A model generated the notes under the pieces. That model searched no databases. It worked only from the letters and a program-made list of their open reading frames with translations, and was not told the origin of the DNA. Positions 11,615-60,382 of a stretch of DNA of 64,000 nucleotides are shown here, in pieces. The stretch is taken from NCBI RefSeq assembly GCF_030296895.1, contig NZ_AP028022.1, positions 1,612,001 through 1,676,000 on the forward strand. Reading direction: 5' to 3'. Both the position numbers and the translations under genes were made by a program. Origin of the DNA: Helicobacter felistomachi. Its GTDB lineage: Bacteria; Campylobacterota; Campylobacteria; Campylobacterales; Helicobacteraceae. The stretch's first letter is position 1. Every line of letters begins with the position of its first letter.

Positions 11615-12551
11615 TCACTCTTTAACGAGCAAAACTGGCGCTACAAAGCGCAATGACACTCGCCCCACATAACACAACATGCCCGACACGACCAAGTGCA
11701 TAGGGCTTAATCTCTTACTAAAGGCTAAAAACAAACTGGGCGCAACCATCGCCGCAAAATGCGCGGCCAACACGCTTTTACTCAGCACAAGACTAAAGCC
11801 ATGCGCGTGCATGGCTAAAGGCGTGGCGTTCATTACTAAAGTCATTAAGCCAAAGCTTAAGCAGCACACGCATAGGTGGCTAAGAGAAAATGGGGTTTTT
11901 TAAAGAGAGTTTTTAGGGGGACTTTGGGACTTCCTTTAGCGCTAAAGGGTTTAACTTTAGCAAAAAGCTAGATGCCATATTGAGCGCACAGAGCAAGCCC
12001 ACAAAAGCAAAAGAACCCACAAAGGGTACGCTAAGAGATGCACCCCTATATTGCCTAAATGAGGCCCTAAAATGCCCCCAGGATCCTCCACTCACCACAA
12101 GAGCAGTGGCCCTATTTTGGACGTTTTGTGTGTTGCGTTAATGGCTTCTAGGGCTAAAAAGTGGTAAAACTGGTTGATAGCTGTGAAAAAAGCCTAGCAA
12201 AAAAGTCGCTAGACAGAAGAACAGAAAACTTTTAGCCCACAAAGCCACAACGGCTAAACCAGCCCCCACACTCCCTAGCAAAGACACGCCCAAAGTGCCA
12301 TTTTTCCCCCACCTTGAAAAGATAGAAGCCGAAAACAACATGGCAATAAACGCCCCCGTAAGGGTCGTGATAACAGGCAAAGTGGCTAGAGTTGTGCGCC
12401 CTAAAAGCCGCCGCCCCGCTAGCGCACTGCTAAAGGTCAAAAGCGCAACCACTGCCCCGCTAAGACCTTGGAGTAGGAGTAAGATGGTTGTGTTAACATG
12501 GGTGGATTTTAGCGCATTGTTGCAGATTTTGGGTCTATGGGAACTATGCAC
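11615..12551 (-). pseudogene. MFS transporter, decayed
   Basis: Three pieces in different frames read in order on the minus strand: 12551-12138 (hydrophobic, with FSRWGKNGTLGVSLLG), 12098-11913 (FVGSFAFVGLLCALNMASS) and 11869-11615 (LLSFGLMTLVMNATPLAMHAHG-type sequence ending in a membrane segment). Together they make about two thirds of a major facilitator protein. Several frameshifts are needed, and the C-terminal helices are missing, so this looks like genuine decay rather than one sequencing slip. The substrate cannot be judged. Confidence 0.65.
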
Positions 12552-12799
12552 TCTTGCCCTCTATCGGTCTTGGAGGACTGACTGTATGCCCTGGTTTTTC
12601 TTCACAAGTATAAAAACAATCTTTGATCATCCTCATTGCTCTATTTCACTAAAACCAAACTTATATGTTCTAAATATTTACATTTTATACTTTCAAGCAA
12701 TCAAGCCAAAAAACATACGGTGGCAAAAAGTGCTACCCCTTATATTTTTGCATTTATACTTTAAAACCCATGATAGGATTTTTGTTGTGAATTAAGATA

Positions 12800-13374
12800 T
12801 TGATTAAGGTATTTGAGCATGAGGGTCTTTTTGAATTTATTCTACTTTGTCTATGTGGGGCTTGCACTCACACCTACATGGGCGATTTTTATTTGCACAA
12901 GCACCACGCTCATCACACCTTTTTTAATCTTTTGAGTGTTGTGGTTGTATGTGGAATTTTTGCCCTATTATCTTGGCTTTACATGCACCTTGTTGCAAGG
13001 TACATGCCTCCGGAGGATGCAATGTGCGCTGTGGAGATGGTGGAGGTGGCTGAACCTAAATACATTCCTATTTATATTGCCTATTTTGTGATTGCCGTTA
13101 GCCTTAAAAATTGCGTCCTATTTGTTGTGGTGTTTATGCTTATTTATCTTTTAATTCTCAAGGGAAGTTTTCATATTTTAATCCTTATCTTTTGTTTTTT
13201 GGTTACCACTTTTACGAGATTTCTATTGACCCTAGTCAAATCACCGGCGACTCCTCAAAGTATGCAAAATATAAAGTGTTTGTGATCTCAAAAAGAAAGC
13301 TCAAAATAGAAAAGCAGTATCCAAAGCTTATTGGTCTTAATGAATTTGTTTTTCTTGAGAAGGAAGTGAAATAA
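12800..13374 (+). pseudogene. kwaA: KwaA-like membrane protein of a Kiwa anti-phage system, one frameshift
   Basis: Kiwa is a two-gene anti-phage system in which KwaA is a four-helix inner-membrane protein. This frame opens at TTG 12800 (no in-frame ATG follows the upstream stop), with hydrophobic segments near residues 10-22, 48-70 and 95-125. It then shifts: the tail from about 13165 reads FNPYLLFFGYHFYEI, then KVFVISKRKL, then LIGLNEFVFLEKEV. The NP-x4-GY/F-x-(F/I)YE pattern, the ISK-K strand and the final acidic-aromatic strand match what I know of KwaA C-termini. One extra A at 13165-13166 restores the frame (LILKGKFSYFNPY). AT-richer than its neighbours. The next gene starts three bases after the stop. 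Confidence 0.6.
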
Positions 13375-13376
13375 CA

Positions 13377-14280
13377 ATGTCTATGCTCTATTGCCACATA
13401 GGAGGGATAAATTATCGTGTTGGCGACATGCCTTTAGAGGACACATGGGATCTTAAAACATAAAACATATGAGAATTGCCAAAAGAAAGACTATCGCAAA
13501 GAGCATGGGAGAAGTTTAGGAAAAAAGGAGGTGTTTTATATCCAAGCTCCCTTGAGAATGCTCGAGGACTACAATCTTGAGCTTGTGATAGGTGGCGACA
13601 CATCTAGTACCAATACGATTAGTTTAAATGTCTTAAAAGAAAATGGTGGCAATCAAGAAAACCAGCCTAAAGTGCTGTTTGTGCGTACAGAAGAAGGGGG
13701 TGATGTTAAATTGTACTTCCAGGCAATTAGACGGGGTGCTGTCATCAAGAAAGGTTTTGTTCTTTTAGGCAACAAACCATGTATTGAAAATGGAGCAGTC
13801 ATTTTGATTCGCGAACAGATAGATGCTTATTGGAGTCGTAAAGACGAGAAGCTTTATTTTAAAAACATTGAGGACTTGGAGCGCATATTGCCCCACTTTT
13901 TTGAAAAAAAAGTTCAAGATCTTAGACAAGAACTTAGATCTATTAAGAACTCTGACTACCAATATTTGTATCTAGATTTAGACTTAGACAAAATCCAACC
14001 CACTCTACCAAAAACAAAGCTGGCTAGAATCGATTTTTTATTGCAAAAGGGGAACTTGGAGATTTTTAGAAAGAATGGCGATCCAGGAAAACGGAATGCC
14101 TATTTAAAATACGCTCAAAAGTATCGGCCTCAAATACTTAAGGATCATAAGTTGGTTATCTGCAAGGTCGCTGATTTGGACTCTCTCTACCATATTGTGT
14201 GCGAGGCCTACTACACCACAGAAATAGGAGGAGAACAGCGGGTTGCCGCTGTTTTTGAAAAAAATAGCACTAGAGACTAA
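13377..14280 (+). pseudogene. kwaB: KwaB-like DUF4868 protein of a Kiwa system, one frameshift
   Basis: Starts at ATG 13377, with AGAAGGAAG about 10 bases upstream inside kwaA. The first 23 codons (MSMLYCHIGG through DTWDLK) are in a different frame from the rest. Reading A4 as A3 at about 13456-13459 joins them (WDLKHKTYENC) and gives about 300 residues, the usual KwaB size. The body has the DUF4868 layout: a beta-rich region with KLYFQAIRRGAVIKKG, then ILIREQIDAYW, the LYFKNIEDLERIL helix start, a helical middle, and a C-terminal segment CEAYYTTEIGG. In Kiwa, KwaB is the cytoplasmic partner of KwaA. Identification is from memory of the family. Confidence 0.55.
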
Positions 14281-14813
14281 CTTGGCTTAGAAGCTTTTAA
14301 TGGATGCGATGCTAAGCGTGTGTCAAAAGATATTGGTTTTTTGATCCTTATCACATGGTTGCAGCATAAGCCTCTCACATCCCCCATCTTTTCCGCACCC
14401 TAAAAGAGCATACCCCTCCTACTTCTAGACTACCGCCCCTTGCCATTATATTCCTTAAGATTTTACTTTATTTTGCTTTTGGATTTGTATTGGTACTGCG
14501 CTTGCGCCATGTGTCTTTTGGAGACTTCTTTATTTCTTTGTGCCTTAAGTAATCTTTTTACTTTGTTATATCTGCCACTATTACTTTTACTTTAAAATAT
14601 TGTTATCCCAATCCTATAAACCACTAAACCACTAAGACTCTAGGATTTAGATTCTCCTACAAGTGTAGGCTCTAAAAAAGTCAAAATGGTTTTAGAAGAA
14701 GTGAAGGAACAACAATCGACCAAAAAGGACAAACCAAAACTTTACAAATAAGACATAGGGATAAATATTTGGAATGGAATTGCTAGGATGGGATCAAGAA
14801 GTTAAAACAACTC
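14281..14813. other. AT-rich intergenic stretch between the Kiwa-like locus and 5S rRNA
   Basis: About 530 bases without a supported gene. A 21-codon frame, from ATG at about 14685 and rich in K, E and Q, is the only coding-like piece and may be a relic. Base composition is clearly AT-richer than the core genes, like the preceding two genes, which suggests it belongs to the same acquired segment. Confidence 0.4.
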
Positions 14814-14928
14814 CCCCGCATCACCCTACTTTCCCACACTTGAAAAGCGCAGTATCATCGGCGTAAGAGAGCTTGACTTCCAGGTTCGGGATGGGGCTGG
14901 GTATTTCCTCTCTTCTAGGGACACGGGA
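14814..14928 (-). rRNA. rrf: 5S ribosomal RNA
   Basis: The minus strand reads CCATCCCGAACCTGGAAG and later GCCGATGATACTG, matching the conserved 5S loop B/C and helix V region. The ends pair as helix I (5' CCCGTGTC with 3' GATGCGGG). The length of about 115 bases fits. It lies downstream of 23S in the same direction. Ends are approximate by a few bases. Confidence 0.85.
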
Positions 14929-15206: not shown

Positions 15207-18101
<2,895 letters not shown>

Positions 18102-18389: not shown

Positions 18390-19343
18390 ATGCATTGCAT
18401 TTTGATTTGGCTTTGTGCCGAAGTCGGGCTGATTTTATGCATTCTTGTCGTCACTCTTGCCTTTAATCTGTGTAAGAGTATTATCAAGTGGTTTGATAGA
18501 CATGCTAAACAACTAAACAAGCTTAAAGCCCCCCCCCAACTACAGAAACCAAGACCATGCAGCATTAATTTTACAAATGTTGGGGAGGTGATCTGCTTTT
18601 CAGTAGATCTGTTTAAGCCCTTTGCCATCCAAGACCCTAACCATGTTTTTCATTTGAGTGCCGCCCACGACACCATGCAATATGTAGATGTAGATATGGA
18701 GCATTTTAGCGCGCGTCTGTATGTAGAAATTCTCAAAGAATGGGAGCTAGATTTTACAGATCGCTTAAAGAAAAATTTACAAACTGCTCCCGATTGCGCC
18801 AAACTCTGCATAAAAGCCATGCCCTTTTTGCCTCAAGAAATCGCCCCAGTTTTAGAACTCTACCACGATGGAGATTTTTATAGGTTTCAAACCACGCACA
18901 GAAAGCCTAAGGACTTGCCCACCTTTGATCGAGATATTCTATATCATAACATTAAGGAATATTTAAGGATTTATCAAGGGGCTTTAGCGGGTGTGGTCGA
19001 TAGCCTTGTACGCCCCAAGAACAAGCCAAAACTCAAGCGCAAAACCCGTAAGCAAATCGCTAAACTCCGCTTGCAAGAAACTTGTGGCATACTAGCCCCC
19101 CAAGATTTTAAAACCTTTAATTTAGACCGCCCTAAAGCGTATAGTGCTCTACACAAGCACCGCTTCACTTTTAATAAACACAAGCATTACTACTTTGAAT
19201 ACGCCCTACAGATATGGATTTTGCAACGCTTGTTAGAGATTTTTAACGGCTCAATTGAAATGCAAGAAATCGAGCACACCTTATTAAAAAGACTCAAGCA
19301 TGGTTCTGCACAAGCCCTGGAGTTTTCAAAAGTCTTTAACTAA
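18390..19343 (+). CDS. Hypothetical membrane-anchored protein
   Basis: A 317-residue protein of unknown family. Residues 3-28 form one strong transmembrane helix at the N-terminus, followed by a mostly hydrophilic domain. It has a basic stretch KNKPKLKRKTRKQ near residue 210 and a His/Lys/Tyr-rich segment HKHRFTFNKHKHYY near residue 260. I see no catalytic motif. It lies alone between the 23S promoter region (divergent) and a broken gene. No homologue comes to mind. Confidence 0.6.
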   Translation: MHCILIWLCAEVGLILCILVVTLAFNLCKSIIKWFDRHAKQLNKLKAPPQLQKPRPCSINFTNVGEVICFSVDLFKPFAIQDPNHVFHLSAAHDTMQYVDVDMEHFSARLYVEILKEWELDFTDRLKKNLQTAPDCAKLCIKAMPFLPQEIAPVLELYHDGDFYRFQTTHRKPKDLPTFDRDILYHNIKEYLRIYQGALAGVVDSLVRPKNKPKLKRKTRKQIAKLRLQETCGILAPQDFKTFNLDRPKAYSALHKHRFTFNKHKHYYFEYALQIWILQRLLEIFNGSIEMQEIEHTLLKRLKHGSAQALEFSKVFN

Positions 19344-19352
19344 AGACACGCC

Positions 19353-19530
19353 GGGATAGATAGCACGATAAACGCCCTTGCAAGCCATTTAAATTTGCCC
19401 ATCATGCTTAAAAATAGTGGTGTGGTCGTGTAGTGGTGTGGTCGTGCCAAATCCTGACTTTAAACCCCATGTTTATCTAAACAACCGCCCCCACAGCCTA
19501 GAGTTTTTGCACTTGCTTTTTAAACTTTAA
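19353..19530 (+). pseudogene. Fragment of an unknown gene broken by a 16-bp tandem duplication
   Basis: The frame GIDSTINALASHLNLPIM... runs to a stop exactly in a duplicated 16-mer (19415-19446). Removing one copy lets it continue as PNPDFKPHVYLNN and PHSLEFLHLLFKL to a stop at 19530. Codon use looks like a real Helicobacter gene. No start is visible, so this is probably the remains of a longer gene. It might be the 5' part of the glycosyltransferase whose 3' part lies at 22.5-23.0 kb, but nothing proves this. Confidence 0.4.
19415..19446. repeat. Perfect 16-bp tandem duplication
   Basis: TAGTGGTGTGGTCGTG occurs twice head to tail at 19415-19430 and 19431-19446. Because 16 is not a multiple of three, it frameshifts the surrounding fragment, and it also brings in a TAG. 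Confidence 0.9.
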
Positions 19531-19570
19531 AGAACACAAATCTATAAAGCCCACACCCTACCCCCTTTTA

Positions 19571-20784
19571 GTGCCTACGGGTTTAGAACGAGCATTTTGT
19601 GAATGGTGCGCCGACAAGATCGATGCCTACACAGAAGCCTTATTTTTTGATCACCAAGTTTCATTTTTTAAACAAATCTTTGCAATGCAACAGCAATTTC
19701 TCCAAGAAAATACAAATTTTTGGGTGCATGTTTTAGAGTGGTGCGCCAAGCAAATCACCCCCATCACAGACTCCATAAGCGATAAACAAGAGTTGATCAA
19801 TGCCACCTTAAAAGCTAAACAAGCCCTAGACAAAGCGACAGAGAGCCTGATAGATCGTTTTATTGCTTTAGTCATTGACTATATCAGTGAAGATAAGCAA
19901 GCCCTATTTTTTGATGACAGACCCGCCTTTTTAAAATTAGTCATTAGAGCACAAGCACATTTTTTTAATGATCATGGCGTTTTTCTTGAAGATCTAAAGG
20001 CAACAACCCCCCAAAAGAAAGCACACTAGAAACCTCCAAGCTAGAAACCCCACAACCCCAAAGCATCGATCACTTCCCCAAAGCCATTAAGGCGTATTTG
20101 GATCAGTTTGTCATTGGACAAGAGAATGCTAAAAAACAAATGAGTTTAGTTTTTAGCGACCACTATAAGCGCATCAACGGACAATCCACTTTAGAAAAAG
20201 CCAATGCCATTTGTATAGGACCATCAGGGAGTGGCAAGACTTTTTTAATTGAAATGGTAACCAAGTATTTAGACATCCCCTATTGCATCGCCAACGCCGC
20301 CGCCTTCACCCCCACGGGCTACATAGGCAATGAAACCAACCAAATGTTTGCCACGCTTTATAGCAATGCGGGCAATGATAAAGAAAAAGCCGAACAAGGG
20401 GTGCTGGTTTTAGATGAGATCGACAAACTCGGGCAGGGCGGCTGGCATGACAAAGAGTGGCGGCAGGGGGTGCAAAACGAACTTTTAAAAGTCATTGAAA
20501 AGGGCTTTGTGTCCTTTGACTATGGGAATCGGGCTATGGGGGAGAAGATTACCTTAAAGACGGAGAACATGCTTTTTATCATCCTAGGGCATTTTGAAAA
20601 GCTGTGGCACAACAACGAACCTAAAGAGCCTAACAATGTGCTGTTTGGCAAAGTCCCCAAAATCCCCCACTTCACCAGTGAAGACTTGATAGAATGTGGC
20701 ATGAAACGGGAGTTTTTACGCCGTTTCGCGGTGCGGGTGGTCTTTGAGCCCGTGGATATAGACATCTTACCAACCGCGCCCTAA
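19571..20784 (+). pseudogene. ClpX-like AAA+ ATPase with a novel N-terminal domain; one frameshift, truncated C-terminus
   Basis: The AAA+ part has Walker A GPSGSGKT (about 20221-20244), a pore-loop GYIGNET, Walker B VLVLDEIDKL and the RRFAVRVVF segment near the end. All are ClpX-like, and YLDQFVIGQENAKK is the entry to the ClpX large domain. Upstream, from GTG 19571, is a 150-residue domain without the ClpX zinc finger. It holds two copies of an ALFFD-x4-F-x-K motif (residues 23-50 and 111-138). The parts are in different frames, and C6 to C7 at 20007-20012 joins them (TTPPKESTLETS). The ClpX C-terminal subdomain is missing. It is a paralogue, not the housekeeping clpX. An IS lies 45 bases downstream. 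Confidence 0.6.
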
Positions 20785-23165: not shown

Positions 23166-24445
23166 ATGTCTATCACACTGATCAACAATGAAACAAACGA
23201 GAAGTTTGAGTTTGAGACCATCCATTGCACCCGTGGTCCCAATGCGATCGATTTCTCTAAGCTTTTTGAAACTTCGGGAATTTTTTCTTACGATCCGGGT
23301 TACGCTTCTACGGCTGGGTGCAAATCCACCATTAGCTATATTGATGGCAAAAAGGGTGAGCTCTACTATAAGGGGCACCCCATTGAAGAGCTGGTCGCCA
23401 AATATAAATATGTGGATGTGTGTAAGCTCTTGCTCACCGATGAATTGCCAAAAAATGAGACCGAGTCGCTAGAGTTCGAGTTAGAACTACGCCACCGCAG
23501 TTTTATCCATAGAACCTTGATGAACATGTTTTCCGCCTTCCCCACAAACGCCCACCCTATGGCAAAACTCAGCAGTGGAGTGTCTATCCTCTCCACTTTT
23601 TATTTCGATCACGCCAGAATGGACAGCGAAGAAGACCGCCAAACAATGGCAAGGCGCATTGTGGCAAAAATACCAACCCTAGCGACCATTTGCTACCGCA
23701 ACGAGATTGGCGCGCCCATCATCCACCCCGACATCAGCCGCAGCTACATTGAGAACATTTTATTCATGCTAAGAGCCTACCCGCACGAGCGGCTTAAACA
23801 TGGTCTCAATGGCGAGGTGGAGATCACCCCCCTAGAAGTGGAGGCTTTAGACAAAATCCTCACTTTACACGCCGATCACGGGCAAAACGCTTCCACCACC
23901 ACCGTGCGCAATGTTGCCTCTACGGGCGTGCACCCTTATGCGGCGATCAGCGCAGGCATCAGCGCACTTTGGGGGCATTTACACGGCGGGGCAAATGAAA
24001 AGGTCTTAAACCAACTTGAAGAGATCGGCGATGTGAAAAATGTAGATAAATACATCGCACGGGTGAAAGACAAAAACGACTCATTTAAACTCATGGGCTT
24101 TGGGCATCGGGTGTATAAGAGCTACGATCCACGGGCAAAGATCCTAAAGCGACTCAAAGACGACTTGCAAGCCAAGGGGATTAAAATGAACCCCAAACTC
24201 GATGAAATCGCCGCTAAAGTCGAAGAAGTCGCTTTAAAAGACGATTACTTCATTGAGCGTAACCTCTATCCTAATGTAGACTTTTACTCCGGCACGATTT
24301 TGCGGGCCCTGCAAATCCCCGTGCGCTTTTTCACCCCGTGTTTGTGATCGGGCGCACGGTGGGCTGGTGCGCCCAGCTTTTAGAGCATGTCAAAAACGCC
24401 CAAGCTAGAATCGCCCGCCCTAGACAGGTTTACATCGGTAAATAG
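23166..24445 (+). pseudogene. gltA: Citrate synthase, frameshifted near the C-terminus
   Basis: Type II (hexameric) citrate synthase, the TCA entry enzyme. ATG 23166 follows AGAAAGGAAGCCC. The sequence is normal for 390 residues. HAERLKHG-type and GAANEK-type motifs appear as [18 protein letters not shown] and the catalytic MGFGHRVYK segment. It then goes out of frame at PVRFFTP. Changing C4 to C5 at 24334-24337 restores [13 protein letters not shown] through RQVYIGK to a TAG at 24445, about 426 residues. Loss of the last part would remove much of the dimer contact, so a sequencing slip is the likelier cause. Confidence 0.9.
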
Positions 24446-26535: not shown

Positions 26536-27478
26536 GCTTTCTATAAATCTCCGGGTGGGTGCTTTTAAAGCGCCGGTGGAACCAAAACCAACTCTCAGGG
26601 TGTGCTCTAATGATTTGCTCGCTGAGTGTGGCTTGGGCTTGCGTGGCTTCTTGGATGTCGGCTTGGCTGTCTTCTGTGATGTTGATTTTAATGGGGGGGT
26701 AGTAAGTTACGAAGTAGTGGCTGTAATCCTCGTTAAAGTCAATGATCACCGCCACAATGTCTATGTTGTAACGGCGGGCTAAAATAGAGCCTATGGTCGT
26801 GTGGGTCGCCTTATGTCCGAAAAAATCCACCTCCACCCCCTCTTTGGGCGAAATGTTTTGATCGACTAAAATCCCCACCAAGCCCTTGCCTCCATTATAG
26901 ACTTTTAAGAGTTCTTTAAACGCTCCGACTTTGTTGATAAAACGCACCCCAAAAGCCTCTCGGTGTTTAACAATCAAGCGGTTAATGCTCTCAAATTTCG
27001 TCAAACGCCCCAAAGACCCCCGATCGTATTGGGCATAATATTGTGCCAAAGAAGTCCCCACCGCCTCCCAGTAGCCAAAGTGCATGCCCATCACCACCGC
27101 CTGCCCGTTCTTGGCTAAAGACTTTAAGACATTTTCTTGGTCGATGAGCGTGAAGCGGGCATCGTAAATGTCTTTAGGTAGAAACTCCACCCGTACGCTC
27201 TCTAAGATGATGAAGGCGAAGTTTTGGTAAGCCCTTTTAATGATCGCTTCTTTACGGACGTGATCCATTTCGGGGAAAATAAAGTCTAAATTCGCCTTAG
27301 CATCGTAGTAACGCCTCTTGTCTAGCTTGTAAAAGACAAATCCCAAAGCCCGCACACAGCCCACAAACCAAGAATGGGGCAAGCGTGCCAACACAAAGCC
27401 CAATCCATTTAAAGCCCACTCTAAAACCTTGCCCCAAAATATCCCCCACTCCCTTTGAATACCGCTCTCTTTAGCCAA
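26528..27478 (-). CDS. lpxL: Lipid A late acyltransferase (LpxL/HtrB family)
   Basis: Inner-membrane acyltransferase of lipid A synthesis, 316 residues. It has one N-terminal hydrophobic region (about 15-50). The catalytic HX4E motif is MHFGYWEAVG near residue 134. DQNISPKEGVEVDFFG near 205 is the second conserved block of the LpxL/LpxM family. The start overlaps the 3' end of waaC by 8 bases, as in the H. pylori lpxL-waaC-ppx-fdxA run. Which acyl chain it transfers cannot be told from the sequence. Confidence 0.88.
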   Translation of the reverse strand: MAKESGIQREWGIFWGKVLEWALNGLGFVLARLPHSWFVGCVRALGFVFYKLDKRRYYDAKANLDFIFPEMDHVRKEAIIKRAYQNFAFIILESVRVEFLPKDIYDARFTLIDQENVLKSLAKNGQAVVMGMHFGYWEAVGTSLAQYYAQYDRGSLGRLTKFESINRLIVKHREAFGVRFINKVGAFKELLKVYNGGKGLVGILVDQNISPKEGVEVDFFGHKATHTTIGSILARRYNIDIVAVIIDFNEDYSHYFVTYYPPIKINITEDSQADIQEATQAQATLSEQIIRAHPESWFWFHRRFKSTHPEIYRKPT

Positions 27479-28510
27479 GTTTGTTTGTCCCTTTCAATAT
27501 GGTTAGCACCGCCTCTTGAATGGCAAGGGGCGGGATGTCCTTAATAGAGTGGTCGTTTTTGTTGTAGTCGGCTTTAGGGTTACCCACTAGGGCAACATGC
27601 CCTATGCCCTTTAGTTCAAATCTCTCTTTAGGCGTGTTGCCATACAGAGTTACCGAAGGGATTTTTAAAGCCCACGCTAAATGCACCACACCCGTATCTC
27701 CACCCACCACCACACTCACCCTAGCCACAAGGGTTTTCACCTCTTCTAGGCTTAAGGGGGGCAAAAGTGTAACTTGCACTTGGGGGCTTAAATCGGTGTA
27801 AAGCTCTTGGGCTTGCTCTACATGGGCGTGGCTTAGGATTAAAATTTCTAGCCCGTGATTCCTCAAGGCTAACCCCACTTGCTTAAAGCCCTCTAAAGGG
27901 TAGGTTTTATGCACCTTAGAAGTTTCTAGCACAAACAAAACCTTGGGCGTGGGGGTATTTAAGATCGGCTCTAACTTAGGGCTGTTGGGGCAGAAAAAGG
28001 CGAGGTTTCTAGAGGCTAAAGTGTCCCCCCACTCTTGTGCCCCAAAGGCAAGGTTAAAGGCGCAGTGCAAGACCTCTTCGTTGCGCTTTAGAATGTGGGC
28101 ATTGTAGGGGATAGCAGTTTTATGGGTGTAAAAGAAGCTTGCGAGCTTTTCTCGAATGGAGTGCTTGTCAAAACCCACAAAATATTTAGGCTTTTTCTTT
28201 GCCAAAAATAGCCCGATTAAAGCGGATTTTAACAACCCTTGCATGTCAATGATGAGATCAAACACCCCCAAAGAGCGCAAATGCCAATAAAAACGCCAAA
28301 TTTTTAGGGGGTTTTTGGAGCGCAAGGTTTTTTTGTAGGGCAAGGCGTGTAAGACATCAATGTAGGGGAGTTTTTGAGCATAGGGGCAAAGTTTTCGTCC
28401 ACAAACCAATGAATCTTAGCCCCCTTGTAGTGTTGCTTCAAAAAGGGTAAAAACACGGCACTTACGATCACATCGCCTAGGGCTGAGAGCCGAATGATGG
28501 CGATTTTCAT
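27471..28510 (-). pseudogene. waaC: LPS heptosyltransferase I WaaC, frameshifted near the N-terminus
   Basis: GT9 enzyme adding the first heptose to Kdo-lipid A. The N-terminus MKIAIIRLSALGDVIVS (from 28510) and the body (HYKGAKIHWFVDENFAPML, then LPYIDVLHALPYKKT) are in different frames. One extra T in the T5 run at 28371-28375 (A5 on the coding strand) joins them as PMLKKLPYIDV. The donor-site block VVGGDTGVVHLAWAL is present near residue 255. About 345 residues when repaired. LPS core synthesis depends on it, so the frameshift is probably a base-calling error. It overlaps ppx and lpxL. Confidence 0.88.
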
Positions 28511-57511: not shown

Positions 57512-59670
57512 TTATCCTTTGATTTTTTTATGCACGCCCCTTAAGCGTTGGGCGTTAAACACCACGCTTAAACTGCTAAGGCTCATCGCTAGGCTGGCTA
57601 GCATAGGATTTAGCATAAAGGGGGCTGCCACGCCACAGGCTAGGGGGATTGCCAGCGCATTATAACAAAAAGCCCAAAATAGGTTTTGTTTAATGTTTCT
57701 AATCGTGTATTGGCTTAGTTTGATCGCGTGCAAGGCGGCGCTTGGGTGGTTGTGTAGGCTTAGCACATCGGCGACTTCTAAGCTTGCCCCACTGCCTAGT
57801 CCCATCACCACCCCCACATCGCTTTTAGCTAGAGCCGGGGCATCGTTTAAGCCATCGCCCACCATCATCACCACCGCCCCGCTTTTTTGCAAGTCCTCTA
57901 GGGTGGATAATTTGTCCGCCGGTTTAGCCTCCGCTTTGTAGTCCAAATTTAAGGTATGTGCCATTTGCGCTACGCTCGCCTCTCGATCTCCGCTCAAAAG
58001 CAGGGTTTTTAGCCCACAAGCGTGCATGCCAGCAATCGCCTCTTTTGCCCCCTCTTTGAGCTTGTCCTCAAGCACAACAAGTCCCAAGATTTTAGAAGGT
58101 GTGCCAAAGAACACCCCGATCCCCTCAAAATCGCCTAAGTGATTGCCCTCCTTAAAAAACTCCAAATTGCCCGCCCGGTACTCTTGCCCGGCAATGAATC
58201 CAACCACGCCCAACCCTGCGCTCGCCTTCACTCCCTGCACCTCTTGCAAAGGTGCGCCCTGCTCTTTGGCGTATTTCACTAGGCTTTTGGCGATCACATG
58301 CTCGCTTTGCACCTCTAGGCTCGCACACAAACTAAGCAAGTCTAAAACCTCCACACCTTCAGCCGTGCGGACTTCTTTCACTACGGGTTTGCCTAGCGTG
58401 ATGGTGCCCGTTTTGTCTAGCAAAACATGGCTAACGTCCTTAGCCTTCTCTAAACTCTTAGCGTCCTTGAAAAAGAGCCCTAATAAGCCTGCCTCTTTTT
58501 GTGCCACTAACAAAGCCATCGGCGTGGCTAACCCCAAAGCACAAGGACAAGAGATCACCAGCACGGCGATAAACACCTCCAAAGCCTCTTTAAAGCCCCC
58601 TTAAACACCCACACGATAAAGGCAAGGCTCGCTATGGCGATCACAATGGGGACAAACACCCCTGCCACTTGGTCGGCAAGCCTTGCAATGGGGGCTTTAG
58701 AGCCTTGTGCTTTGGCGATTAAATCTAGGATTTGTGCCAGCGTGCTTTGCGCCTTGTTGTGGGTGGCTTGCATTAAAAAGGGGGTGTTGGTGTTGAGTGT
58801 GCCTGCAAACACCTGAGAGCCCTCTTTTTTGAGCACGGGCACGCTTTCGCCACTGAGCATCGACTCGTCTATCTCGCTCGCTCCCTCAATTAAAACCCCA
58901 TCCACAGGGACATACGCCCCGGGCAAAACCCTTAAAATATCGCCTTTTTGAAGGCTGTCAATCTCCACCTCCATATCTTGTCCCTCTTGCACCTTGAGGG
59001 CTTTGGTGTTGTGCTCTTGCATGAGCTCTTGCATGGCTTGCACGGCTTTATCTTTAGAGCTTTGCTCGACCCGCTTGCCCCCCATCACAAAGAGTAAAAT
59101 CACGCACACACTCTCAAAGTAATAACCCTCTATGTTAGCGTGGCTATAAGCTCTAAAGAGCAAGACAAGGCTATAACAAAATGCCGCACTGGTGCCTAGA
59201 GCCACTAGGCTATCCATATTCGGCTGCCGTGCCCACAACGCCTTAAAGCCGTGTATGTAGAAATTACGCCCCATGTGCATGACAATTAAAGTTAAAATGA
59301 GCTGTGCTAAACCATTGTTAAAGGGGGCTTTTAAAAAGAGTGGCAGGGGCAATAGGGGGGCAAACATCGATAAACACAGCACCCCCAAAGTGCCTAAAAG
59401 TGCAAAGAGTAATTTAAGATTGGGCGTTAAAAAAGACGGCTCTAGTAAGTCCTTAAGGGGCTTTTTTTGGGCGGTGTAGCCCAGCTTAGAGATTTGCTTA
59501 AAAATGTCCTCTAGGCTGGCTTGGCTCTCATCATAGACCACAAAGGCTTTTTTGCTGAGTAAATCCACCCCCACTTCTTTGACATACGCCTTACGCCCTA
59601 AAGAGCGCTCAATCCCACTCGAGCATGCGCTGCAAGTCATGCCCTCAATGTAAAATTGTGCCTTTGTCAT
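57512..59670 (-). pseudogene. copA: Copper-exporting P1B ATPase CopA, one frameshift
   Basis: Heavy-metal P-type ATPase. An N-terminal HMA domain with MTCSACSSG (residues 10-18) precedes the membrane helices. The A-domain motif SGESVPV lies in the first frame, which stops near 58580. The second frame brings the ion-binding SCPCALGL, the phosphorylation site DKTGTIT and the hinge GDGLNDAPALA. Adding one C to C5 at 58596-58600 joins them (FKGGFKEALEVFIAVLVI) for about 720 residues. The start lies 12 bases after pssA. It exports Cu(I), and a broken copy would leave the cell copper-sensitive. Confidence 0.9.
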
Positions 59671-59682
59671 TATGTCCTCCTA

Positions 59683-60382
59683 TCATTTGTGTTTAAAGAC
59701 AATCCTAGCCATGAGAAAAACCCAACGAAGCAGCCCGTAAAAGAGATAACAGAACATAAACGAGCCCAGCACCTCCAAAGGACGCACAAAGAGCAAGAGT
59801 AAGAAGAGCAAGAGTAAGACAAAGAGTTTTAAATTCCACTGCACTTTTTTAAAATTGGGGTAGCGGATATTGCTCACCATCAGCACCCCTAAAAACACAA
59901 TGTAGACCAAAAAGAACTTACCCCAACCCTCCCTTAAAACGCCGTATTTATTGTCGATCAACACCCCCAACACCACCAGCACCGCCGCACTAGGGATGGG
60001 GATACCGATGAACGAATAAGGGTCTGTGGTTTGGGTCGTAACATTAAAACGGGCTAGGCGGATTGCCCCAAAAATCACAAAAAGCGCACAAGCCGCCATG
60101 CCCCACCTCCCATCAAAAATGCCCCACATAAAAATAAGCGATGAGACTTGGCGCCACCCCGAAGGCAACCACATCGGCGAGCGAGTCAAACTCTAAGCCA
60201 AACTTGCTCGTGGTGTTCGTCAGGCGTGCGATGCGCCCATCCAGCCCGTCTAAAACTAAACTCCCCACCACCAGCCAGCACGCCACCACAAACTCCCCAT
60301 GTGAAGCGTGAAGCATCGCCATCACGCCTAAAAAAATGCTACTGGCTGTAAAGAGATTGGGGAAGAGATAGAGCGGTTTCAC
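59683..60382 (-). pseudogene. pssA: CDP-diacylglycerol-serine phosphatidyltransferase PssA, one frameshift
   Basis: Membrane enzyme giving phosphatidylserine, precursor of phosphatidylethanolamine. The first frame from 60382 has the CDP-alcohol phosphotransferase motif DGLDGRIARLTNTTSKFGLE with FDSLAD after it (DG-x2-AR-x8-G-x3-D-x3-D). The second carries the remaining helices. Adding one A to A5 at 60115-60119 (T5 to T6 on the coding strand) joins them as YVGHFFDGRWGMAACA, giving about 233 residues. The start overlaps the ftsH stop by one base. Phosphatidylethanolamine is a major lipid, so a true knock-out is unlikely. Confidence 0.9.

What the first reader, a model, noticed from the sequence alone, without database searches (positions are those of the whole stretch)
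12800..14280. Kiwa-type anti-phage locus (kwaA-kwaB) in a gastric Helicobacter, each gene one base out of frame
A multi-helix membrane protein with a C-terminal NP-x4-GY-x-FYE strand pattern is followed three bases later by a ~300-residue protein with a DUF4868-like layout. The size, order, spacing and membrane/cytosol pairing match Kiwa. The segment is AT-richer than the core genes and lies next to the rRNA genes, among relics and an IS, as expected of an acquired defence island. Each gene can be repaired by one base (A2 to A3 at about 13165; A4 to A3 at about 13456).
Basis: partly seen in the sequence, partly recalled or inferred. Interest (0 to 1): 0.8.

Follow-up and report, generated by a model that had tools for sequence, protein, structure and literature searches.

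The report
Broken, swapped-in Kiwa phage-defence locus
A stomach-dwelling Helicobacter carries a broken copy of a known two-gene anti-phage system called Kiwa, which gastric Helicobacter species appear to pass to one another; it is a new member of a known kind, and its main interest is how the pair is exchanged and lost.

Summary
The locus is Kiwa. A window piece matches KwaA profiles, and four related species carry the same pair uninterrupted; their KwaA proteins match KwaA profiles at 8.7e-11 to 5.2e-7. Profile comparison with seven KwaB and eight KwaA proteins from profile-recognised loci of the same phylum gives 99.8% and 99.95%.

This assembly also breaks conserved genes (4 of 36 found; 0 of 32 and 1 of 35 judged in two relatives), so error is possible. 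But three breaks in 1.47 kb exceed that rate, and kwaB is broken in 4 of the 8 other carriers.

The cassette is horizontally acquired: 91-92% identical to a species whose pnp is only 60% identical, but 70-75% to close kin. It lies between a transporter gene and rRNA genes, a site shared with several relatives. In H. salomonis and H. vulpis, KwaA's tail plus KwaB have a different ancestry from KwaA's membrane half, with the junction at codon 131-133.

New member of a known kind; the exchange pattern is the interesting part.

The parts
12804..14533 (+). Acquired cassette, by identity: one stretch 89% identical to genome G020
   Evidence: gene by gene
12813..13374 (+). kwaA, broken: homology runs through three reading frames (about 12813-12908, 12902-13171, 13159-13371)
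13377..14280 (+). kwaB, broken: 28-residue start in one frame (13377-13463), the remaining 278 residues in another (13444-14280)
11631..12623 (-). Relic of an MFS transporter gene (intact 418-residue copy in L049), the upstream neighbour, found whole or in part near kwaAB in several relatives
14813..14928 (-). 5S rRNA gene, downstream neighbour
15210..18098 (-). 23S rRNA gene

Best explanation
This is a Kiwa anti-phage locus (kwaA-kwaB), acquired as a cassette of about 1.7 kb shared with another gastric Helicobacter lineage, at a site between an MFS transporter gene and the 5S/23S rRNA genes. It is probably inactive in this genome because both genes are frame-broken. In intact relatives it most likely works as described for Kiwa: KwaA sits in the inner membrane and senses phage attack, and KwaB, held by KwaA, binds the entering DNA and blocks its replication and late transcription. 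Shown here: homology, gene order, breaks in this assembly, foreign ancestry. Taken from the literature: the mechanism. Inferred: that these Helicobacter copies defend against phage at all, and that the breaks are real rather than assembly errors. The confidence given is for identity and acquisition; for real inactivation I would say about 0.7.
For: KwaA: window C-terminal piece to PADLOC KwaA 1.4e-5 and NCBIfam KwaA 1.8e-3 (18 bits, below its curated cut-off of 100). Intact relatives: best E per protein 8.7e-11, 4.8e-9, 5.2e-7, 3.6e-9 (4 of 4). L065, from another genus of the family and itself recognised by KwaA and KwaB models, matches window kwaA pieces at 52-60% identity and kwaB at 29%, E 4e-19 for that single comparison. 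hhalign KwaB 99.8%, E 5.4e-29; KwaA 99.95%, E 1.2e-38. KwaA family to solved KwaA 9o0i 1.3e-5. Mechanism: passages of PMC12904381 and PMC11514479. Transfer. Breaks; excess over the assembly's own break rate, P about 0.0007 (0.0017 with rate uncertainty).
Against: KwaB recognition by single profiles is weak: 1 of 4 intact KwaB proteins hits PADLOC KwaB (5.9e-5), Pfam gives nothing relevant, and the window's KwaB piece hits the candidate family PDC-M39B instead (3.1e-5). No solved KwaB is reached by sequence. Predicted structures are unusable (mean pLDDT 39 and 51). On the breaks: the same assembly breaks 4 of 36 conserved genes, including citrate synthase, so one or more of the three may be technical. 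The break rate was measured on conserved core genes only; I made no control on other A+T-rich or dispensable genes. Accounts of the mechanism differ: the passage, citing a preprint, describes a RecBCD-dependent effect, triggered by host RNA polymerase inhibition, with KwaB active without KwaA.
Confidence: 0.88

Rival explanations
1. The locus is intact Kiwa in the living strain and all three breaks are assembly errors.
For: In the same window 4 of 36 conserved reference genes found are frame-broken (citrate synthase, a heptosyltransferase-like gene, a copper ATPase, a phosphatidylserine synthase-like gene; names by sequence recall), against 0 of 32 and 1 of 35 judged in two relatives. Completeness is 94.95%, against 98-100% in 31 of 33 other genus members. 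dN/dS of four pieces against G020 is 0.14-0.48, as under constraint; a fifth, of 32 codons, gives 1.33 but may run past a break.
Against: Three breaks in 1.47 kb against 0.17 expected at that rate (P about 0.0007). The stretches holding the kwa breaks have single-base runs of at most 4, whereas the four core break stretches have runs of 5 or more; but those core stretches are partly longer and the sample is small. kwaB is broken in 4 of the 8 other carriers.
Confidence: 0.25
2. The pair is PDC-M39, a PADLOC candidate defence system, rather than Kiwa.
For: The window KwaB piece hits PDC-M39B at 3.1e-5 and no KwaB model.
Against: 1 of 7 profile-recognised KwaB proteins also hits PDC-M39B (8.8e-6), and 1 of 8 KwaA proteins touches PDC-M39A (0.065), so PDC-M39 may be an outlying Kiwa branch. 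On the KwaA side, 4 of 4 intact relatives hit KwaA models and none hits PDC-M39A at E up to 1.
Confidence: 0.06
3. A KwaA-like membrane protein whose partner is repurposed, not a phage-defence system.
For: kwaA stays open in 8 of 9 carriers while kwaB is open in 4 of 9, as if KwaA had a use of its own.
Against: KwaB homology spans nearly the whole length; the six pairs of intact species show dN/dS 0.11-0.37 for both genes; only 4 discordant species, so the imbalance may be chance (sign test 0.125, by hand).
Confidence: 0.06

Closest known systems
Kiwa (KwaA-KwaB; solved KwaA chains 9mrg, 9o0i)
   Same: Gene pair and order, sizes of 184-198 and 296-300 residues in four intact relatives, hydrophobic KwaA with the conserved NP...GY/F...Y stretch, KwaB homology along nearly its whole length
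   Different: Divergent branch: 1 of 4 intact KwaB proteins is recognised by a PADLOC KwaB model; the window copy is frame-broken in both genes
PDC-M39 (PADLOC candidate two-gene system)
   Same: PDC-M39B hit of the window's KwaB piece
   Different: No PDC-M39A hit for window pieces or four intact KwaA relatives; PDC-M39 models themselves overlap Kiwa proteins
Kiwa locus of L065 (G060, another genus of the same family)
   Same: KwaA 52-60% identical to window pieces; KwaB 29% identical
   Different: Recognised by both KwaA and KwaB models; KwaB frame open

Membership tests
Kiwa | KwaA homology | tested here: met
Kiwa | KwaB (DUF4868) homology | tested here: met
   Profile-profile 99.8%, E 5.4e-29; single-profile hit in 1 of 4 intact relatives; no relevant Pfam hit
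Kiwa | kwaA directly followed by kwaB on one strand | tested here: met
   Window and L003, L004, L006, L007
Kiwa | KwaA is a multi-pass membrane protein | tested here: inconclusive
   A plain hydropathy scan gives 2-4 segments in six open copies and 3 over the window pieces
Kiwa | KwaA and KwaB fold and form a membrane complex | tested here: inconclusive
   Models too poor (pLDDT 39 and 51); no fold search was run; the complex was not modelled
Kiwa | Phage protection | not testable with these tools
   Needs plaque assays
Kiwa | Open reading frames in the window copy (needed for a working system, not for descent) | tested here: not met
   Two breaks in kwaA, one in kwaB
PDC-M39 | Both PDC-M39A and PDC-M39B present | tested here: not met
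   Only PDC-M39B for the window piece; no PDC-M39A in 4 intact KwaA relatives

The most novel reading that the evidence does not exclude
Gastric Helicobacter species trade Kiwa as separable modules: the membrane half of KwaA on one side, and the KwaA tail together with KwaB on the other, joined at the conserved FYE stretch. H. salomonis has the membrane half of H. cynogastricus (one base mismatch in codons 1-132) with the tail and KwaB of H. ailurogastricus type, and H. vulpis changes over at the same place. This would mean that sensing and effector parts evolve by swapping, with the KwaA tail as the KwaB docking part, while kwaB is repeatedly switched off.
Probability: 0.4. Interest if true: 0.55.

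Novelty: new member of a known kind. Interest (0 to 1): 0.36.

Why it matters
The PADLOC KwaB models recognise only 1 of the 4 intact KwaB proteins of this branch, so Kiwa in gastric Helicobacter is probably under-counted. The locus shows cassette transfer between species with diverged core genes, a change of ancestry inside kwaA at one repeated point, and loss of kwaB with kwaA kept in four species. That offers a natural test of which part of KwaA sets phage specificity and which docks KwaB.

Tried and rejected
Pfam and NCBIfam on the pieces: no Pfam hit, and a weak KwaA hit in NCBIfam. Viral contigs with both alignments: no relatives confirmed. AlphaFold of intact KwaB and KwaA with 5 and 6 sequences: poor models, so no fold search was run. 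Solved-structure search for KwaB: nothing relevant. A phase-switch reading (frame switching in a single-base run of kwaB) was considered because the G020 copy breaks in or near such a run. I rejected it for the window, whose breaks lie elsewhere in stretches with runs of at most 4, and other copies break at other places. The extra kwaB-only copies in G019 and G027 are broken too and are not the source of the window allele (75% and 66% identity to it).

Literature: Kiwa with Helicobacter and 'defense system' gave 7 papers, all listed; two of Helicobacter, DefenseFinder, heilmannii gave 211, of which 15 were listed; the KwaA/KwaB searches listed 7 of 7 and 15 of 158. I saw no report of Kiwa in gastric Helicobacter in those titles and abstract starts. 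PMC11840440 (prophages of Helicobacter) has no occurrence of Kiwa in its main text. The five passages of PMC9090908 that I saw do not link Kiwa with Helicobacter. Most subscription papers are not held, so this is weak evidence of absence. The main Kiwa paper was not held.

Full report
What is there. The stretch 12813-14280 holds two adjacent, broken genes. The first, hydrophobic, is homologous to KwaA and runs through three reading frames; the second, about 300 residues, is homologous to KwaB and runs through two. That the bacteria are gastric Helicobacter is taken from the named relatives and, for 'gastric', from recall and the listing.

Membership. Alone, the window's pieces give modest signals: KwaA C-terminal piece 1.4e-5 in PADLOC and 1.8e-3 in NCBIfam, KwaB piece only PDC-M39B 3.1e-5 in PADLOC, nothing in Pfam. 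Relatives settle it. Of 60 genomes searched, 9 (the window's own included) hold the KwaB homologue, and the same 9 of 34 in the genus hold KwaA. Four have both genes open: H. ailurogastricus, H. salomonis, H. cynogastricus and H. suis. Their four KwaA proteins all hit PADLOC KwaA (best E 8.7e-11 to 5.2e-7); one of four KwaB proteins hits PADLOC KwaB. In the phylum, 10 of 298 genomes hit the PADLOC KwaB model. From those ten loci I took seven KwaB and eight KwaA proteins. Left out: the gastric locus L067 itself, two KwaB proteins for which my ATG-only scan gave short frames (L063, L066), and one KwaA that the scan did not list (L066). Their profiles match the gastric ones at 99.8% (E 5.4e-29; the gastric KwaB profile includes the window piece) and 99.95% (E 1.2e-38; four intact relatives only). 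The joined KwaA profile finds the solved KwaA chains 9o0i and 9mrg at 1.3e-5 and 2.1e-5, aligned over the NP...GF...Y stretch. KwaB finds no relevant solved chain. Predicted models were too poor to use.

State of the genes. Among the 9 carriers, kwaA is open over its homologous length in 8: all but the window. For G027 the search reported one stop within the match, but the frame from L019:5983 on is open. kwaB is open in 4. It is broken in G019, G020 and H. vulpis, reduced to about 30 residues in H. labacensis (G027), and broken in the window; G019 and G027 also carry a second, broken kwaB. The imbalance is only suggestive: four species have kwaA open and kwaB broken, none the reverse (sign test 0.125, by hand). 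There is one genome per species, and several are drafts.

Real break or assembly error? Using genes open in two relatives as reference, 37 were sought in the window: 32 open, 4 frame-broken, 1 absent. The mirrored tests give 32 open of 32 for H. ailurogastricus and, for G019, 34 open, 1 shortened and 1 cut at the edge of a stretch, of 36. So this assembly has an unusual load of frame breaks, about one per 8.5 kb of these genes. At that rate kwaAB should hold 0.17; it holds 3 (P about 0.0007, or 0.0017 with rate uncertainty). The rate comes from conserved genes only; A+T-rich or dispensable genes were not used as a control. I take decay as likelier, with one or more technical breaks possible.

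Where it came from. The cassette 12804-14533 is 89% identical to G020. The transporter relic upstream is closest to G019 (85%, against 78% to G020). Downstream, only G019 and H. ailurogastricus align across 14.8-15.3 kb (88% and 87%); H. salomonis, H. cynogastricus and H. vulpis match the 5S part at about 94%, with the first two also matching part of what follows; G020, whose contig ends about 0.9 kb after kwaB, gives only a 68-base match elsewhere. By gene, window against G020: kwaA 91%, kwaB 92%, but pnp 60% and ftsH 84%; window against G019: kwaA 75%, kwaB 70%, but pnp 86% and ftsH 92%; window against H. ailurogastricus: kwaA 71%, kwaB 71%, pnp 84%, ftsH 92%. That is horizontal replacement; which lineage gave to which is open. 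The 5S gene lies roughly 1.5-5 kb after kwaB in L016, L017, L018 and L020, and the 23S gene is also held in L016 and L020; neither was found in the held stretch of L019 and L021. In G019 the stretch matching the window's 5S/23S side lies about 1 kb after kwaB. The transporter gene appears upstream in whole or part in G019, G020, L016-L020 and near the second kwaB of G027, but not in H. suis. The cassette is 38.1% G+C in core of 48-49%; five relatives' copies are 33.7-37.7%.

Exchange inside the locus. H. salomonis kwaA has one base mismatch to H. cynogastricus in codons 1-132 and 47 in codons 133-185 (H. ailurogastricus numbering). Against H. ailurogastricus the pattern reverses, with 18 mismatches in codons 101-131 and two in 132-184, and kwaB is 92% identical overall although pnp is 60%. 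H. vulpis against H. ailurogastricus changes over at the same point (18, then 3). The junction falls in the highly conserved NPYLLFFGYHFYE stretch of KwaA, where recombination would be easiest. It also lies about a dozen residues after the last hydrophobic segment of the H. ailurogastricus protein (102-120), so a functional reading is possible but not shown.

How it works. From passages of PMC12904381, a review: KwaA tetramers in the inner membrane hold KwaB dimers in a lattice; on infection KwaB binds entering DNA and stops replication and late transcription without cutting it; how KwaA senses infection is unknown. Passages of PMC11514479 report phage resistance from a Streptococcus thermophilus Kiwa pair and cite a RecBCD-dependent effect with KwaB active without KwaA. 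That the gastric Helicobacter pairs do the same is inferred from homology.

Verdict.

Noticed in passing
L017 1504-2987, L018 363-1794, L016 6001-7445, L020 5950-7439: Mosaic kwaA-kwaB alleles with a shared junction at kwaA codon 131-133 in H. salomonis and H. vulpis.
   Followed up: partly
L020 7550-8854 (-), L048 9920-11194 (+): A gene joining a T5orf172 domain to an EcoRI-type adenine methylase lies near kwaAB in these two relatives; the ORF list of H. salomonis L004 shows similar frames.
   Followed up: partly
window 23166-24442, 27477-28510, 57530-59670, 59686-60322: Conserved genes (citrate synthase, heptosyltransferase-like, copper ATPase, phosphatidylserine synthase-like; names by recall) are frame-broken, which suggests a noisy assembly.
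   Followed up: partly
L048 11472-12359 (-), L050 6023-6900 (-): Second kwaB-only copies, both broken, in G019 and G027.
   Followed up: partly
L048 6349-6720 (+), L049 10885-11256 (-): A near-identical 123-residue glycine/alanine-rich ORF lies downstream of kwaB in two species; the L048 copy has no Pfam or PADLOC hit at E up to 0.01.
   Followed up: partly
window 18390-20784: Pieces of a broken large gene matching a 988-residue H. ailurogastricus ORF; its last part weakly hits PADLOC models IetA and PDC-S01.
   Followed up: no
L062, L064 (G008, G011): Two genus members carry a different Kiwa that the PADLOC KwaB model recognises.
   Followed up: no
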